Source: Caulobacteraceae bacterium
Lineage (GTDB): Bacteria; Pseudomonadota; Alphaproteobacteria; Caulobacterales; Caulobacteraceae
Assembly (NCBI GenBank): GCA_019748095.1
Contig: JAIEQA010000018.1
Span: forward strand, 112,456-176,455
Reading direction: 5' to 3'
Length of the DNA stretch: 64,000 bases
Shown here: in pieces, positions 27,455 to 35,087 of the stretch
How positions within the stretch are numbered: position 1 is the stretch's first letter
Layout: each line of letters opens with the position of its first letter
The notes under the pieces: generated by a model
What the model saw: the letters and a program-made list of their open reading frames with translations, nothing else
Told to the model about the DNA's origin: nothing
The model's database searches: none
Position numbers and translations under genes: made by a program

Positions 27455-27499
27455 TGGTCGGAGCGACAGGATTCGAACCTGCGACCCCTTGACCCCCAG
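27455..27499 (-). other. attL-like 3' fragment of tRNA-Pro(GGG)
   Basis: Minus strand CTGGGGGTCAAGGGGTCGCAGGTTCGAATCCTGTCGCTCCGACCA: anticodon loop to CCA; the 5' half is not tRNA sequence. Confidence 0.85.
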
Positions 27500-27674
27500 T
27501 GACCATTTTTGGGCTTTTTTGAAACGCGGTGAAACAACAGAATAGGCTGAAAAGCTATTGAAAATACGGCTGAAACTGCTACATACTGATCCAGCCGGTT
27601 TCGTCATGACCCTCTAATTTTTGTGACCAAATCTGTGACCAAATCGGTGGGTTTCAGTACCAGCGAGTTTGCGT

Positions 27675-29114
27675 ATGACCAGCCTCGACCCGTCCGCGTC
27701 GGCCCCCAAGATCCTTCTGACCGCTGGCCCGCGCGGCACCATTCATATGAAGGTGCCGCCAGGCGTTCGTCGTATCCGTGACAGTCTTACGCCCGGCCTG
27801 GACATCCTGATCGGGAAGACCAAGCGCACCTATGCGGTGAAGCTGAGGGTCAAAGGCCGTCCCGGTCAGTTGGTTGTTCGGTTGGGCGACGTCGATCAAA
27901 TGGACCTCAAGGACGCGCGGCTCCAGGCCAGGGCCGCGATCGACGACGCGCGTCGAGGCATCCTGCCAGAGCAAGCGAGCGAGCGCCGGGAACAGGCCAT
28001 GCGCGCTGAAGCAGCGGCGGCTCGCAAAGCGGAACTGGAGGCCGAGCGGGCGCAGTCCGTCACCTTCAAATCCGTCGCGGACGACTACCTCGCCGACAAA
28101 CTTCCCGGTGGCGGCGGCAGGCTGGCCTCCCAGCCCGAACTCAAACGTAAGCTCGAGAAGGAATTGAAGGGTTGGCATAAGCGGCCGATTGCCGAAATCA
28201 CGCGCGCCGAGATCAAGACCCTGGCTAGAACCAAGGCCAAGGCGTCGGAAACCTCAGCCAACCGGCTGCTGTCCTTCATCAAGCGCGTCTTCGCCTGGGC
28301 CGAGGATCAGGACATCATCGACGATAATCCCGCGCTCGGGGTGAAGAAACCGGGGGCCGAAGCCGAACGGATGCGCTATCTCGAGGATGACGAGATCCGG
28401 TTGTTCTGGAAGGCGGCCGACACCATCCCCGAGCCGGCCGGACGACTCTTCCAGCTCTGCCTGGTCACAGGCCAACGCCGGGGCGAGGTCGGCGGACTGC
28501 GGCGTTCAGAACTCGGCGAGTTTCGTTTCAAGGACCGCGAGGGAAAGGCAAGCTCGGTCAAAGCTTGGTTGCTGCCTGCAGGCCGAACGAAGCGGCGGCG
28601 CGATCATGCCGTACCCCTTTCGCCCTTGGCTCAAGCCATCATCGCCGGCGTTCCCGCACTGAAGAGTGAGCAAGGCGAGGTGACGGACCACGTCTTTGCC
28701 ACGGCGGGCCATAGGGACCAGGCCCCCTCGGGTTGGTCGAAGTTCAAGCGAGCGCTGGACGAGGCGATCGGGCGACTGATCGCCGAGGAAGCGGGCGAGG
28801 ATTTCGATGCCGCGCGACATCGTCTGGCGGACTGGCATATCCACGATCTACGGGCGACCTGCGCGACCCATCTCGACATGGAGGAAGTGGATAGCCAGAC
28901 CATCTCGCGGATTCTGAACCATGCCGAGGGCGATTCAAAAAGCATCACCAAGCGGTACAAGCGTTACGCATACGACCGCGAAGCCTCGGAAGCGCTCAAT
29001 CTCTGGGCTGAGAAGCTCGAGCGCTTGACCCAGGCAAGGCGGGACACGGCCCCGCCCTCCCTCTTCGCCTTCAATGACCCAGTGCTTGTCAGTGCCCAGC
29101 GGCAGGCGGCCTGA
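27675..29114 (+). CDS. int: Tyrosine-type site-specific integrase
   Basis: LCLVTGQRRGEVGGLRRSEL; HIHDLRATCATHLDMEEVDSQTISRILNHAEGDSKSITKRYKRYAY (R..HxxR..H..Y catalytic set). Confidence 0.93.
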   Translation: MTSLDPSASAPKILLTAGPRGTIHMKVPPGVRRIRDSLTPGLDILIGKTKRTYAVKLRVKGRPGQLVVRLGDVDQMDLKDARLQARAAIDDARRGILPEQASERREQAMRAEAAAARKAELEAERAQSVTFKSVADDYLADKLPGGGGRLASQPELKRKLEKELKGWHKRPIAEITRAEIKTLARTKAKASETSANRLLSFIKRVFAWAEDQDIIDDNPALGVKKPGAEAERMRYLEDDEIRLFWKAADTIPEPAGRLFQLCLVTGQRRGEVGGLRRSELGEFRFKDREGKASSVKAWLLPAGRTKRRRDHAVPLSPLAQAIIAGVPALKSEQGEVTDHVFATAGHRDQAPSGWSKFKRALDEAIGRLIAEEAGEDFDAARHRLADWHIHDLRATCATHLDMEEVDSQTISRILNHAEGDSKSITKRYKRYAYDREASEALNLWAEKLERLTQARRDTAPPSLFAFNDPVLVSAQRQAA

Positions 29115-29283: not shown

Positions 29284-30177
29284 ATGAACGATATTCCGCT
29301 CCGGCAAAACCAGGACGCCAATCTTCGGCTGCTGCGGGCGCGCCAGGAGATGTTTCATCGGGCAAAGCTGGTTTTCATCGCGCAACTTCTCCTAACCGTG
29401 CTGCTGCCGGTTTCGGGGGCGATCTGGGGCTTGGTTCACGAAGACCAACGCGCGACCATCGCTCTGTTGAGCTTGGTCATGACCGTCGTGGATGCGGCGC
29501 TGCTCGACCGGGCGCAGCGTCGGTTCGTCCGCAACGGTGCCAAGGCGGCCGAGGCGTTCGACTGCAGCGTGCTCCAGCTGCCCTGGAACACCCTGGCGGC
29601 GGGAAAGCCCTTGGACGACGAGGCCGTCGAGGAAGCCGCGACGTCATGGGAACGACGCCGCCAGAACAAAGGGCTGATCGACTGGTATCCGAATGAGGTC
29701 GGTCAAGCCTCTCTCTCGCTCGGCCGCCTGATCTGCCAACGAACGAACCTTTGGTACGATGGCCGGCTCCGGCGATTGAATGGATCTCTCGCTCTCCTCT
29801 TGGCCTGGGCATTGCCGATCACTCTGTTGCTCGCTTGCTGGTGGCTCAACCTGCCGTTTCGCGAGATCGCCATCGTCCTGACGCCAGCTGCCCCCGTCAT
29901 GGTCTGGGCCATCCGCGAGCATTTCCGGCAGAAGGATACGGCCGAGGCGCAAGAGCAAACCAAGGGCGAGGCAGAGGCCTATCTGTCGGCCATCAAGCGT
30001 GGAGAACTGAGCGAGCCCGAGGCCCAGCAGGCCGCTCGCGACGTCCAGAACGCCCTGTACGCCAGACGCGCGGCCAGCCCCATGATCATCCCGGGGCTGT
30101 ACCAACTCGCCCGCCCGGGCCTGGAACGTCAGATGAAGGCCGGGGCCGCGGAACATGTCCGCGACCCCAAATCCTAG
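29284..30177 (+). CDS. S-4TM family putative pore-forming effector (CBASS effector)
   Basis: MNDIPLRQNQDANLRLLRARQEMFHRAK; four predicted TM helices in two pairs; DCSVLQLPWN, DWYPNEVG, ICQRTNLWYD as in S-4TM proteins. Confidence 0.8.
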   Translation: MNDIPLRQNQDANLRLLRARQEMFHRAKLVFIAQLLLTVLLPVSGAIWGLVHEDQRATIALLSLVMTVVDAALLDRAQRRFVRNGAKAAEAFDCSVLQLPWNTLAAGKPLDDEAVEEAATSWERRRQNKGLIDWYPNEVGQASLSLGRLICQRTNLWYDGRLRRLNGSLALLLAWALPITLLLACWWLNLPFREIAIVLTPAAPVMVWAIREHFRQKDTAEAQEQTKGEAEAYLSAIKRGELSEPEAQQAARDVQNALYARRAASPMIIPGLYQLARPGLERQMKAGAAEHVRDPKS

Positions 30178-30187
30178 ATGCGCTCTG

Positions 30188-31072
30188 TCAGGACGCGGGG
30201 AAGAACTCGCCGAAGACCTCTCGCCAGATCCTGACCGCCTCCCCTTCTCGGCCCTGCGCCTCGGCGCGGTAGGCCCGCGTCGCGGCCATCTCCGCGGCCT
30301 CCAGCTTGAGACGGGCGGCCGAGCAAAGCGCGGACGTCATCTCATCAGACACCGGCGGCCCCAGATGAGCAGGATCGGCCCAGTCCTCGTGAACGCTCGC
30401 GGCCGCCGCCGCGAAGAAGCGTCGCGCCTCATCCGGGAAGGTGTTGAACGGCCCGTCGATGAGATCCAACGCCATCACCTCAACCAGGAACGAGGGCTCG
30501 ATGGGCCGACCGTTCGCTCGGTTCCAGCTCTTGAGCATCTTCACCAGCGGGACCCAGTTGCCCGAGAGATCCCGGTTCTTGGCCGTGGTCAGATCGTTGT
30601 GTGTCGCCGGATTGGTCTTGATCCAGGTTCCGAGCTGTTCGTCCGGAATCTCGTAGTCCGAGCCGGAGGCGAAAGCGGGCACCACGTCCAGGCTGACGAC
30701 CTTGCCGTCTTCATGCTGGGTCTGGTTGCGCTTCTCGAACCAGACGGTCACGCACCGTCGATCGCGGACGACCTGATCGCGGCCATAGGCGTCGACCAGA
30801 CAGGCCTCCAGGTCATCGAGCACGGCTTTCGGGTGCGCCTTTCGGCGCTCCGACTCCTTCGTGCCCAGAACGACGAAGATGTCGATGTCCTTGAGCGGCT
30901 TGGTCTTGGTGTGCCGGCCGTAGGATCCTGCCAAGAAATCATGATCGACGTCGAAAGACGCCTGGACCGTGGCCCGAACGTCTTTCTGCCGCCGACTGGC
31001 GTCGTCCTGTTCCGTCTTCGTCAGCTCCAGGCGGGATTTGAAGGTGGCGAAAGCGTCGCTGACCTTGCTCAT
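30188..31072 (-). CDS. CBASS oligonucleotide cyclase (CD-NTase)
   Basis: FLAGSYGRHTKTKPLKDIDIFVVLG (GS...DxD motif) and VVSLDVVPAF third acidic residue; ATGA overlap with HORMA gene. Confidence 0.9.
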   Translation of the reverse strand: MSKVSDAFATFKSRLELTKTEQDDASRRQKDVRATVQASFDVDHDFLAGSYGRHTKTKPLKDIDIFVVLGTKESERRKAHPKAVLDDLEACLVDAYGRDQVVRDRRCVTVWFEKRNQTQHEDGKVVSLDVVPAFASGSDYEIPDEQLGTWIKTNPATHNDLTTAKNRDLSGNWVPLVKMLKSWNRANGRPIEPSFLVEVMALDLIDGPFNTFPDEARRFFAAAAASVHEDWADPAHLGPPVSDEMTSALCSAARLKLEAAEMAATRAYRAEAQGREGEAVRIWREVFGEFFPAS

Positions 31073-31572
31073 GACGGTCTCCAGTAGTTGAGGCCCGCAG
31101 TGATATCGTGCGTGGCGATGGCGGTGCCGGTCGCGCGGCTGACGAGTCCGGCGGTCGAACGCTTGGTGCAGCTCGACATCCCAGGCACGTCGGGTCGGCC
31201 GGGGCGCGTCGTCAGGATGATCGTGTAGGTGCACCCGCTGGGCGGACGTCCGACCTTGTCGATGGTCCGCTGGAGATGCTGGCGATCGACCCACATGTCA
31301 TCGTCGACGCCGCTGCCGGCATAGGTGATGGGAAAGTCCCAGCGGAGCTGAAGATCGCGTGACCCAGGCTTGTGGAACTCGATCGTCACCGTGGTCAGCC
31401 AGCCGCTTTCAAGCCAGGTTCGCGCGGCATTGCCCACGATGGCCCAGTCGTCGACGAGTTTCTCGGGGGACAGACCGGCCGCCTGGACGATACGGGTCAG
31501 CTGATTGCGCATGTGATCCGCAACGAAGGCCGCGGTGTGGGTGCGGGTATAGGTGAAGGTTGAGACGGCCAT
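31069..31572 (-). CDS. cap7: Bacterial HORMA-domain protein of CBASS (Cap7-like)
   Basis: STFTYTRTHTAAFVADHMRNQLTRIVQAAGLSPEKLVDDWAIVGNAARTWLESGWLTTVTIEFHKPGSRDLQLRWDFPITY...PGRPDVPGMSSCTKRSTAGLV. Confidence 0.8.
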   Translation of the reverse strand: MAVSTFTYTRTHTAAFVADHMRNQLTRIVQAAGLSPEKLVDDWAIVGNAARTWLESGWLTTVTIEFHKPGSRDLQLRWDFPITYAGSGVDDDMWVDRQHLQRTIDKVGRPPSGCTYTIILTTRPGRPDVPGMSSCTKRSTAGLVSRATGTAIATHDITAGLNYWRPS

Positions 31573-32042
31573 CAGTGCGCGGCTCCCCAGTCGATCGTGA
31601 GCGCCGATGCCGCGGCGGGTTGCGCGTTGGACGCCTGTTCCGCCAGCGCGCCAGGAGTGTCGTTGAAGTCATGAACGACCAGACGCGGTGCCCGCTTCTT
31701 CAAGGTCTCCGTCACCCAGTCGATGTCGACAGGATCGCAGGGCACATACAGCGTCCAGTCTTTCGCCGTCGGGTTCCAGTCGAGCGCCGCGACGTCGAGT
31801 CCCAGACTGACCGCATCGGCACCATAAGAGAAATAGAGCACCAGGCGGTGGCCATCGCCCTTCAGCGTCATTGGGTGGTCGGCGTAATGCTCCTCGGCGA
31901 GCAGGCTCGCCATCACCGTGGTCGCCGCCGTCAACTGAGCCGTGTCGACGGAATCCGACTGGGTGATCAGGTCGATGACCGCCGCCCAGGTCTCGGACCC
32001 CGACCGGGCCGGGACGGCCGCGATATCCCTACGCAGCTTCAC
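31572..32042 (-). CDS. CBASS-associated protein, possible second HORMA-like (Cap8-like) protein; GTG start
   Basis: VKLRRDIAAVPARSGSETWAAVIDLIT...; position between HORMA and TRIP13 genes with overlapping ends. Confidence 0.6.
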   Translation of the reverse strand: MKLRRDIAAVPARSGSETWAAVIDLITQSDSVDTAQLTAATTVMASLLAEEHYADHPMTLKGDGHRLVLYFSYGADAVSLGLDVAALDWNPTAKDWTLYVPCDPVDIDWVTETLKKRAPRLVVHDFNDTPGALAEQASNAQPAAASALTIDWGAAH

Positions 32043-32910
32043 GGCCGACCTCCTTGCCCGCCTGTGCGGCAGCCTTGATCGCGGCCAGCAGTTGCTGGCT
32101 CGTGACGAGGTTGGGATCGCGCGCCGTCGCCAGCGACCCGGCGAGGGCGCCGACGACCGCCTTGCGCAGGCGCCGCCCATCCATACCGTTGGACGCGGTG
32201 ACGAACAGGGCCATGTCGCGCCCGAGGCCGGCGACCTTGGGCCATTGGCGTGCCAGGGCGTCCAAGGTGTCGCGGATGATCTCGGCCCGGGCCTCGGCGT
32301 TCGGCGGCGGGATGGTTTCGATCAGGTCCGCGCGGGACAGGAAGGCGGCGTCGACCGCCTGCGGATAGTTGGTTGTCGCAATCAGCAGGATGTTCTTGTG
32401 GGTCCGCGTCAGCAGATCGAGCCCGGCGAGCACGGCGTCGGTCGCCCGGTGCACATCGACAGGATTGGCTTCCAGGCTCATCCGGCGCCGATCGGCCGCC
32501 AAGGTCTCCACTTCATCCAGCAGCACGACGGCGACGCCACCCATGCCGGCTTCCGGAATGGTTTGGGTGAACAGGGTGGTGACCTGCTGCTGGCTCTTGC
32601 CGAGCGAGGCGCTCGCCAGACCGTGCGGGTCGATCTGCAGGAAGGTCACCTTCTGGCCCGGAAGCATAGACGCCACCTTGGTGGCGAGGCCCCGGGCCAG
32701 CGTCGTCTTGCCGGTTCCGGGAATACCGGCCAACACGATCAAACCATGGAGCGGCGCGGCGTCGAACGGGACGGACCGGCGGACGGTCAAGGCCAGCATC
32801 GATTGGGCGAGAAGGCGATCCTTGACGCCCTGATCGATCTTGATAGCAGCCCACGCGGTCTCGAACTGGACGTCGGGCAGAGGGCAGCGGTAGGCGATTC
32901 CTGAATTCAT
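32029..32910 (-). CDS. cap6: TRIP13/Pch2-like AAA+ ATPase of CBASS (Cap6-like)
   Basis: GLIVLAGIPGTGKTTLARGLATKVAS Walker A; VVLLDEVETLAADR Walker B; ILLIATTNYPQAVDAAFLSRADLIETIPPP. Confidence 0.87.
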   Translation of the reverse strand: MNSGIAYRCPLPDVQFETAWAAIKIDQGVKDRLLAQSMLALTVRRSVPFDAAPLHGLIVLAGIPGTGKTTLARGLATKVASMLPGQKVTFLQIDPHGLASASLGKSQQQVTTLFTQTIPEAGMGGVAVVLLDEVETLAADRRRMSLEANPVDVHRATDAVLAGLDLLTRTHKNILLIATTNYPQAVDAAFLSRADLIETIPPPNAEARAEIIRDTLDALARQWPKVAGLGRDMALFVTASNGMDGRRLRKAVVGALAGSLATARDPNLVTSQQLLAAIKAAAQAGKEVGREAA

Positions 32911-33558
32911 GGTTCAGTCCTTTCGGTTCGGGGAAGAAGAATCCGAGAGGGCTGTGTCGCGGCCACGGTTGTGTGGGCGCGACGGCGATGCATAAGATCG
33001 CGCCGCTGGCTCGGATGAGTCGGTATCGGGGAGAGATCGGCCTCCTGAGTGACGGCCAAGTCGAAGTTGGCCGGCCTCTCCCCACCTTGTTCACGCTCAG
33101 ATCACTTGACAGCCCCGTTGTCTGATGCCGACCAGACCGTCGCGCGCGACGGCCGCGTCGTCGTTTGAATTCTGAGGGAATCGGAACAGCCAACGCCCAA
33201 TGCTCAGGGACTCGTTAAGGCGAGTCGCAGGCGACGCAAAGGGAACGTTAACGCGTCTTCACTCTGATGCGATTCGTGCCCTGTGTCGAATGCCACGTCA
33301 AGATGTTGTGGTGATATTGTTGTTCGACCCCACATACGGGCTTCGTCGAAGGAATCATGCCGCGTTGGGGCAGCCCGCCGTTCTTGGCATCTTTCGATGA
33401 GGGAGGCTTTGGCAATCGTGATGGATCCTGCTCTTGCGGCCTCTCCACGCCGCCCAATTCAGGTCAGCCCGCCGGGCGCGTGGACGCCAGCCTCAGACTG
33501 TGGCAAGTAACATATCCTTGCACTTTGGGCGTATAGATATAGGAAATGTAACATCGCG

Positions 33559-34170
33559 ATGGCGACCATGACCCACATCGAACGCGCCCTCGCCGTCGCT
33601 CAAGCCCAAGGCGTCGCGCGCACCCGCGATTTCGTCACCGCCGGCGTCCCCCGCGTCTATCTCAAACGCCTCGTCGAGGATGGTCGACTGAGCCAGGTCG
33701 GCCGCGGCCTTTACAGACCTAACGACGTTTCTCTGCCCACGACCTCCAGCCTGGCCGAAGCGGCGCGCGTGGTACCGAACGGGGTGATCGCGCTTTTGTC
33801 CGCCCTGCGATTTCACGGACTGACCACCCAGGCCCCTCATGCCGTCTGGCTTCTCATCGACACGCGGGCGTGGACTCCTGTAAATCCGCCTATGCGGCTG
33901 AAGATCGTTCGAGCCAGCGGCCCCTCGCTGACGGAGGGCGTGGAGCCGCATGACATCGACGGCGTCACTGTGCCCATCACATCGCCCGCCAAGACCGTGG
34001 TCGACTGCTTCAAATACCGGCGGAGGGTCGGGCTCGACGTCGCCCTGGAGGCGCTTCAGGATTTCATGAAGGACAGCGCACGCCGTCGCCAGCGCGACGC
34101 GCTCTGGAAATATGCCGAGATCGACCGGGTCCAAACCGTGATCCGCCCTTATCTTGAAGCGCTCAGTTGA
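33559..34170 (+). CDS. abiEi: Type IV toxin-antitoxin system AbiEi family antitoxin
   Basis: ALAVAQAQGVARTRDFVTAGVPRVYLKRLVEDGRLSQVGRGLYRPND winged-HTH; TSPAKTVVDCFKYRRRVGLDVALEAL. Confidence 0.88.
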   Translation: MATMTHIERALAVAQAQGVARTRDFVTAGVPRVYLKRLVEDGRLSQVGRGLYRPNDVSLPTTSSLAEAARVVPNGVIALLSALRFHGLTTQAPHAVWLLIDTRAWTPVNPPMRLKIVRASGPSLTEGVEPHDIDGVTVPITSPAKTVVDCFKYRRRVGLDVALEALQDFMKDSARRRQRDALWKYAEIDRVQTVIRPYLEALS

Positions 34171-35087
34171 CCCGCCGACCGGTCCGCAATGTCGCCGCCT
34201 CGGTCCGAGATCGGCTGACCGCAAGGGCACGGCTGCGCCGCGAGGACGTGCAACTCGTCTTCCTGCGCTACGCGATCGAACGTCTTCTCTATCGATTGAG
34301 CGTCTCCAACCACCACGACCGCTTCATCCTGAAAGGCGCCATGCTGTTTGCCCAATGGGCGCCGACGCCGCACCGACCGAGCGGCGACCTCGATCTCCTG
34401 GGTCTCGGCGACAGCGCCCCTGATGTCGTGCGAGACATCTTTCGCGAGGTTGTGGCGATCCCTGTCGACGATGACGGCGTGCTGTTTCTGCCAGATACGC
34501 TGGTCGCCGAAATAGCGCGGCCCGACGCGGAATACAGCGGCGTGTCGGTGGACGTCAGCGCGGAGATCAACGGCGCGAAGCTCAAGGTCCACATCGACAT
34601 CGGATACGGAGACGCCATCACGCCGGCGGCCGTGCAGATCGAATATCCATCGCTCCTGGATCAGCCGAGGGCCAAGCTGCTGGCCTATCCGCGAGAGACC
34701 GTCGTCGCCGAGAAGTTCCAGGCCATGGTCGAACTGGGGATGGCCAACACGCGGTTGAAGGACTTCTTCGATCTGTGGGCGATCGCCAACACCTTTGAGT
34801 TCGACGGCGAGACTTTGGCGGAAGCGCTCGCCCGCACCTTCGATCGTCGCGATACGGCACTCCCTACAAGCGATCCATTGGCGCTCACGTCCGCCTTTGC
34901 CGAACGAAAGCAGAGAGAATGGACGGCCTTTCTCGATCGGACCGACATCGCGATGGCGTCGAAATCCCTACCCGAGACCCAGGCGCTGATCGCGGCCTTC
35001 GTCCTGCCGCCGGTATTGGCTCGCGCCAGAAATGAGCCCTTTGTCCGGCGCTGGACCCCCGACGACGGTTGGATGGAGACGACATGA
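34167..35087 (+). CDS. abiEii: AbiEii nucleotidyltransferase toxin
   Basis: DRFILKGAMLFAQWAPTPHRPSGDLDLLGLGD; KVHIDIGYGDAITP; YPRETVVAEKFQAMVELGMANTRLKDFFDLW; TTGA overlap with abiEi stop. Confidence 0.9.
   Translation: MTRRPVRNVAASVRDRLTARARLRREDVQLVFLRYAIERLLYRLSVSNHHDRFILKGAMLFAQWAPTPHRPSGDLDLLGLGDSAPDVVRDIFREVVAIPVDDDGVLFLPDTLVAEIARPDAEYSGVSVDVSAEINGAKLKVHIDIGYGDAITPAAVQIEYPSLLDQPRAKLLAYPRETVVAEKFQAMVELGMANTRLKDFFDLWAIANTFEFDGETLAEALARTFDRRDTALPTSDPLALTSAFAERKQREWTAFLDRTDIAMASKSLPETQALIAAFVLPPVLARARNEPFVRRWTPDDGWMETT

What the first reader, a model, noticed from the sequence alone, without database searches (positions are those of the whole stretch)
29284..32910. Type III-like CBASS with a convergent, opposite-strand S-4TM pore effector
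Sequence: four minus-strand genes with overlapping or abutting ends (TRIP13-like AAA+, HORMA-like, HORMA, CD-NTase) and a four-TM protein on the plus strand whose stop (30177) is 10 bp from the cyclase stop (30188). Established: TRIP13/HORMA-regulated CBASS is usually described with effectors, often the NucC nuclease, in the same operon and orientation. Inference: a membrane pore effector under HORMA/TRIP13 control, with its own promoter, would be an uncommon regulatory arrangement. Effector dose is separated from sensor expression, and convergent transcription gives possible antisense control.
Basis: partly seen in the sequence, partly recalled or inferred. Interest (0 to 1): 0.82.

Follow-up and report, generated by a model that had tools for sequence, protein, structure and literature searches.

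The report
CBASS with a facing pore effector
This is a bacterial anti-phage alarm system of a known kind (type III CBASS) whose predicted cell-killing membrane protein sits alone on the opposite strand, facing the sensor genes; the odd layout recurs in seven related genomes, and the sensor genes are preceded by an undescribed structured element also found ahead of other defence operons.

Summary
Confirmed. At 29284-32910 lie TRIP13, two HORMA proteins and a CdnD-like CD-NTase on the minus strand, faced by an S-4TM effector (PF18159, E 2e-70) with 10 bp between the stop codons. The layout is conserved: of 390 Caulobacteraceae genomes, 12 carry the HORMA2 marker and 7 of these (window included) have the same convergent S-4TM, gaps of 0-10 bp and no other SMODS cyclase, in at least four genomic contexts. 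The S-4TM is under purifying selection (dN/dS 0.04 to the closest copy) and its divergence tracks that of the sensor genes. Trees place it among alphaproteobacterial type I CBASS effectors; a distant S-4TM branch sits inside type III operons of Rhodococcus and an acidobacterium, so type III systems took up S-4TM at least twice. One Caulobacter genome has two complete CBASS operons tail to tail at this junction, suggesting how the layout arose. A separate effector promoter and antisense control remain untested. A ~142-nt structured element with covarying helices lies upstream of TRIP13; it recurs upstream of other type III CBASS, Pycsar and E1/E2-JAB operons and is not in Rfam. Verdict: new variant of type III CBASS, mechanism unproven.

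The parts
29284..30177 (+). S-4TM (SMODS-associating 4TM) putative pore-forming effector, 297 aa
   Evidence: PF18159 E 2.2e-70; PADLOC 4TM effector; AlphaFold model pLDDT 94.9, all-helical; dN/dS 0.044 to L114
30178..30187 (.). 10-bp gap between the facing stop codons; 0-10 bp in all seven convergent loci
30188..31072 (-). CdnD-like CD-NTase (cyclic oligonucleotide synthase)
   Evidence: PF18144 E 7e-22; NF041117 296.6 bits; PDB 6p8u/6p82/6p8j E about 1e-70; catalytic motif intact
31069..31572 (-). HORMA2 (bacHORMA_2)
   Evidence: PF18173 E 2.1e-45; PDB 6p8r/6p8s
31572..32042 (-). HORMA1-like protein (GTG start inferred)
   Evidence: PADLOC PDLC00881 E 6.7e-37; PDB 6p8p and 6p8s chain C; below Pfam cut-offs
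32029..32910 (-). TRIP13-like AAA+ ATPase
   Evidence: PADLOC PDLC00915 E 4.6e-118; best PDB matches are Pch2/TRIP13
32945..33086 (-). Conserved structured leader element upstream of TRIP13
   Evidence: fold z -4.0; 15 of 35 pairs with changes on both sides, 89.4% of cells paired vs 35-51% for slid controls; recurs upstream of other defence operons; no Rfam match at this position
33270..33302 (-). Conserved TTGACG...ACGAATC promoter-like sequence upstream of the leader (inferred promoter)
   Evidence: alignment A3; not found by the sigma-70 consensus scan
27669..29114 (+). Tyrosine integrase of the host mobile element, next to and in line with the S-4TM gene (context)
   Evidence: PF00589 E 9.8e-15
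33559..35087 (+). AbiEi/AbiEii toxin-antitoxin pair on the other side (context)
   Evidence: PF13338, PF08843; PADLOC

Best explanation
The block is one functional type III CBASS. On phage infection the HORMA proteins bind and switch on the CdnD-like cyclase, TRIP13 resets them, and the cyclic oligonucleotide made by the cyclase binds the S-4TM protein, which breaches the inner membrane and kills the cell before phage release. The S-4TM gene was taken over from a type I CBASS that stood tail to tail with the type III operon; the type I cyclase and any original type III effector were then lost, leaving a hybrid with sensor and effector on opposite strands. Shown: gene identities, intact motifs, conservation of the convergent pair, selection on the 4TM, and absence of any other SMODS cyclase. 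Inferred: the ligand match, pore formation, abortive infection and the order of events. The 0-10 bp gap leaves no room for a terminator between the genes, so overlapping transcripts are likely; regulation by that overlap is only a possibility (about 0.25).
For: Families and motifs. Convergent pair in 7 of 12 HORMA2-positive Caulobacteraceae genomes. Shared block exactly from the 4TM start codon to upstream of TRIP13, in different surroundings. dN/dS of 4TM 0.044 (window-L114) and 0.17-0.19 at saturated dS. Distances of 4TM and cyclase correlate (Mantel r 0.91, best of 120 permutations). Exactly one SMODS cyclase, the facing CdnD, in each of the seven genomes. Trees: 4TM nested among alphaproteobacterial type I 4TMs, cyclases in one clade. 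Two facing CBASS operons in L029/L117, where the 4TM has its own type I cyclase. Type III operons with S-4TM inside show HORMA/TRIP13 pairing with this effector family elsewhere.
Against: No activity, ligand or phage data. The order of loss is inferred: L117 could instead have gained a cyclase and the KAP gene. In the 4TM tree L111 pairs with L117 (99/98) whereas in the cyclase tree L117 joins the six (99/92), so a second capture or a rooting error is possible. The convergent clade's cyclase is sister to SAVED-type systems (93/76), so its product may differ from what type I S-4TM relatives bind. PF18144 may miss some CD-NTases, and one genome is only 77% complete.
Confidence: 0.72

Rival explanations
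1. The S-4TM is an orphan passenger or works with another cyclase elsewhere; the type III operon has lost its effector or uses one in trans.
For: Some S-4TM genes have no detected cyclase nearby (8 of 88); the upstream region of the 4TM is not conserved.
Against: Pairing kept in seven genomes, at least four contexts and two genera, with purifying selection; no other SMODS cyclase in those genomes.
Confidence: 0.13
2. Inhibitory signalling as in Panoptes: the cyclase makes a nucleotide at rest that holds the S-4TM off, and phage nucleotide sponges release it.
For: Panoptes uses a membrane effector held off by a cyclic dinucleotide (PMC12657218); separate expression of sensor and effector would suit a guard design (inference).
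Against: HORMA/TRIP13 is described as a switch that controls cyclase activation in type III CBASS (PMC9122588); no mCpol is present; S-4TM is a different family from OptE.
Confidence: 0.06
3. (Compatible with the best explanation, but denies any role for the layout.) The convergent orientation carries no regulation: it is a scar of two facing defence operons that lost parts, and either orientation would work equally well.
For: L117 shows the two-operon state; Rhodococcus keeps the same gene set in one operon.
Against: The gap stays at 0-10 bp although the junction sequence differs in each lineage.
Confidence: 0.55

Closest known systems
Type III CBASS with two HORMA proteins (CdnD, HORMA1, HORMA2, TRIP13; PDB 6p82, 6p8j, 6p8u, 6p8r, 6p8s, 6p8p)
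   Same: All four sensor and regulator genes, same order and strand, intact motifs
   Different: Effector is S-4TM on the opposite strand; in the sampled relatives it is mostly NucC-like (DUF6602) or SAVED on the same strand. A leader element precedes TRIP13; in many of the plasmid relatives an HTH plus ImmA/IrrE pair stands there instead
Type I CBASS with S-4TM effector (cyclase and S-4TM in two-gene operons)
   Same: Same effector family and the same alphaproteobacterial 4TM clade
   Different: Here the cyclase is a HORMA-controlled CdnD and faces the effector
Type III CBASS with S-4TM inside the operon (Rhodococcus opacus pLPS8 L025, Rhodococcus zopfii L094, Acidobacteriaceae L093)
   Same: TRIP13, HORMAs, cyclase and S-4TM together
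   Different: S-4TM is downstream on the same strand and belongs to a distant 4TM branch
Facing pair of CBASS operons in Caulobacter sp. RYN_462 (L029/L117)
   Same: Same facing junction and closely related type III genes (80% identical cyclase)
   Different: 4TM has its own type I cyclase and a second 4TM; a KAP/PifA-like gene follows the type III cyclase

Membership tests
Type III CBASS | CD-NTase with intact catalytic residues | tested here: met
Type III CBASS | HORMA protein(s) encoded beside the cyclase | tested here: met
   bacHORMA_2 above cut-off; second HORMA by PADLOC and PDB matches
Type III CBASS | TRIP13-like AAA+ ATPase encoded beside the cyclase | tested here: met
Type III CBASS | Effector gene adjacent | tested here: met
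   S-4TM adjacent but on the opposite strand
Type III CBASS | Cyclic oligonucleotide made on phage infection and needed for protection | not testable with these tools
   needs biochemistry and phage assays
S-4TM effector family (PF18159) | Full-length match to the family profile above its cut-off | tested here: met
   positions 1-291 of 291, 237.7 bits against 26.9
S-4TM effector family (PF18159) | Four transmembrane helices | tested here: met
   four hydrophobic 19-mers; long helices in the model
S-4TM effector family (PF18159) | Forms a pore when bound to a cyclic nucleotide | not testable with these tools
   no relative in the PDB by sequence or fold
Panoptes (OptS/OptE) | mCpol synthase with S-2TM-beta effector | tested here: not met
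   cyclase is SMODS and effector is S_4TM; neither mCpol nor S-2TM-beta is reported for these proteins
Known regulatory RNA families (Rfam 15) | Leader at 32945-33086 matches a described family | tested here: not met
   no match at this position at E <= 1

The most novel reading that the evidence does not exclude
The element upstream of TRIP13 is an undescribed class of structured regulatory RNA shared by several kinds of nucleotide-signalling and ubiquitin-like antiphage operons in Caulobacteraceae (type III CBASS with 4TM, SAVED or NucC effectors, a Pycsar cyclase with E1/E2/JAB, an MBL with E1/E2/JAB), and together with the facing, separately transcribed effector it sets sensor and effector doses independently.
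Probability: 0.35. Interest if true: 0.75.

Novelty: new variant of a known kind. Interest (0 to 1): 0.6.

Why it matters
It shows that a HORMA-controlled cyclase and an S-4TM effector drawn from a type I CBASS lineage can form a stable unit, so sensor and effector modules of CBASS can be recombined without being in one operon. That makes two questions testable: whether signal specificity changed when the effector was swapped, and whether separating effector from sensor transcription limits self-killing. The shared leader element, if it acts as RNA, would be a common control layer for different antiphage systems.

Tried and rejected
Searches for the S-4TM in phage records, solved structures and viral protein structures gave nothing significant. 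The first viral-contig scan found no relative; the profile scan found four loci, all type I-like. The genome-contig scan used one motif that the L112/L115 copies lack, so it underestimates convergent cases; the family-wide HORMA2 survey filled that gap for Caulobacteraceae only. Phylum and class surveys added no convergent case. A remnant of the type I cyclase next to the window's 4TM was looked for with profiles and not found. The apparent extra gene between cyclase and 4TM in L034, L036, L038 and L042 looks like the C-terminal part of the cyclase. A weak TRIP13 match in L035 (31 bits) was discounted as a generic AAA hit. MAFFT alignment of distant leader copies misplaced the stems; the model-based alignment was used. 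DNA-level searches for the leader in plasmids found nothing; two viral-contig pattern scans gave one hit not confirmed by the model. Attachment-site direct repeats were not found in the window. Papers on S-4TM, and the Ye 2020, Burroughs 2015 and Millman 2020 papers, are not in the held library, so the literature check is incomplete.

Full report
Observation. The window lies in a 3.6-Mb Caulobacteraceae genome (Brevundimonas is my guess from genome size, not tested). The minus-strand genes overlap by 1-14 nt, and nucleotidyltransferase and Walker motifs are intact. The cyclase is closest to the chains 6p8u, 6p82 and 6p8j, and the HORMAs to 6p8r/6p8s and 6p8p. From memory these come from the two-HORMA CdnD CBASS study of Ye et al. 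2020, which is not held here.

Context. A tyrosine integrase (27669-29114) stands beside the 3' part of a tRNA-Pro gene (about 27460-27500), and type IV secretion genes follow from about 36 kb, so the locus appears to lie in an integrative conjugative element. The same 35-bp tRNA stretch occurs at two more places in the genome. An AbiE toxin-antitoxin pair flanks the other side.

Is the facing layout conserved? A search for bacHORMA_2 in 390 genomes of the family found 12 positives. Seven, including the window, have the S-4TM facing the cyclase; stop-to-stop gaps are 10, 10, 4, 4, 0, 0 and 2 bp. One (G629, the same record as L029) has the facing S-4TM with a KAP/PifA-like gene between, and the other four have NucC-like or SAVED effectors on the same strand as the operon. 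In the six closest members the shared DNA of the cassette starts at the 4TM start codon and ends about 400 bp upstream of TRIP13 (the window and L114 share more), while the DNA beyond differs: integrase in the window and L114, an acyltransferase-like gene in L112/L113, a divergent gene in L115/L116, and an unrelated integrase in L111. L112/L113 and L115/L116 are near-identical pairs and L114 is close to the window, so the seven genomes represent four well-separated lineages.

Is the 4TM maintained? dN/dS between the window and L114 is 0.044 for the 4TM (98% identical), and 0.17-0.19 to L112-L116, where dS is saturated. Protein distances of the 4TM track those of cyclase, HORMA2, HORMA1 and TRIP13 (Mantel r 0.91, 0.76, 0.69, 0.84; at most 2 of 120 permutations as high; five lineages only, L117 included). 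SMODS cyclases number exactly one in each of the seven genomes, the facing one.

Origin. Of 88 S-4TM loci, 67 have a type I cyclase on the same strand (38 upstream, 29 downstream; L035 counted here after discounting a generic AAA hit), 8 have none detected, 7 are the convergent type III cases, 3 are in-operon type III, and three are single cases (L117 dual, L037 divergent, L068 convergent without HORMA). The 4TM tree puts the convergent six in one clade (100/100) inside the alphaproteobacterial type I group (99/95), and the Rhodococcus/Acidobacteriaceae type III 4TMs far away. The cyclases of the seven fall in one clade with that of L117 (100/99), sister to SAVED-type III cyclases (93/76). L029/L117 shows two complete operons tail to tail: second 4TM, type I cyclase and S-4TM against PifA-like KAP gene, CdnD, HORMA2, HORMA1 and TRIP13. 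The simplest account is that such a pair lost the type I cyclase and the KAP gene, but the reverse cannot be excluded, and the position of L111 relative to L117 differs between the two trees.

How it works. By analogy with type III CBASS: HORMA-dependent cyclase activation, TRIP13 reset, cyclic oligonucleotide, membrane effector, cell death. S-4TM folds with high confidence as an all-helical protein (pLDDT 94.9) with no solved relative. Ligand and pore are unknown. With 0-10 bp between stop codons, terminators cannot lie between the genes, so overlapping 3' ends are likely. Whether this matters is untested. No consensus promoter was found for the 4TM.

Leader. The region upstream of TRIP13 folds better than shuffles (z -4.0). 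In a model-based alignment of nine distinct copies 89.4% of pair cells are standard, against 35-51% for slid controls, and 15 of 35 pairs show changes on both sides; the alignment was fitted to the structure, which favours it. A family-wide search of 388 genomes gave ten hits: the eight training loci and two new ones, 37-40 bits, upstream of a Pycsar cyclase/E1-E2/JAB operon (G437) and of an MBL/E2-E1-JAB operon (G589). Weaker hits lie upstream of TRIP13 in a SAVED-type (L119, 25.6 bits) and a NucC-type (L120, 18.4 bits) system. These weak hits are near the level of reverse-strand echoes of the palindromic stem (12-24 bits), so position and visible shared sequence, not score, carry them. No hit was found in the other two type III loci of the family (L118, L121) or on the plasmid relatives near TRIP13. 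RNA, single-stranded DNA hairpin or protein operator cannot be told apart here. No such element was found in the paper library, which is incomplete.

Verdict. The layout is real, conserved and selected, and a new variant of type III CBASS. The regulatory claims are plausible and untested.

Noticed in passing
window 32945-33086 (-); L146 6378-6513 (-); L147 5772-5918 (+); L119 4851-5000 (+); L120 5197-5332 (+): About 142-nt structured element with covarying helices upstream of type III CBASS, Pycsar/E1-E2/JAB and MBL/E1-E2-JAB operons; no Rfam family at the window copy
   Followed up: partly
L029 6102-13837 (same as L117): Two complete CBASS operons tail to tail; the type III cyclase is followed by a PifA-like KAP NTPase (PADLOC PifA 385 bits), a possible unreported CBASS effector
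   Followed up: partly
L025, L093, L094: TRIP13-HORMA-HORMA-cyclase-S-4TM in one operon in Rhodococcus and an acidobacterium, with a distant 4TM branch
   Followed up: yes
L116 4982-5803 (+), L115 1815-2636 (+): A second 4TM protein of another PADLOC 4TM family (PDLC00724) upstream of the leader, same strand as TRIP13
   Followed up: partly
L068 7457-9328: Methylobacterium locus with an S-4TM between its own cyclase and a second cyclase facing it, another tail-to-tail case
   Followed up: no
window 27457-64000: Integrase beside a tRNA-Pro 3' fragment, type IV secretion genes, then P-type ATPase, multicopper-oxidase-like and outer-membrane-efflux-like genes: apparent integrative conjugative element with defence and metal cargo; far end not located
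   Followed up: partly
L147 6077-9895: Pycsar cyclase (PADLOC PycC 705 bits) followed by fused E2-E1 and JAB genes
   Followed up: partly
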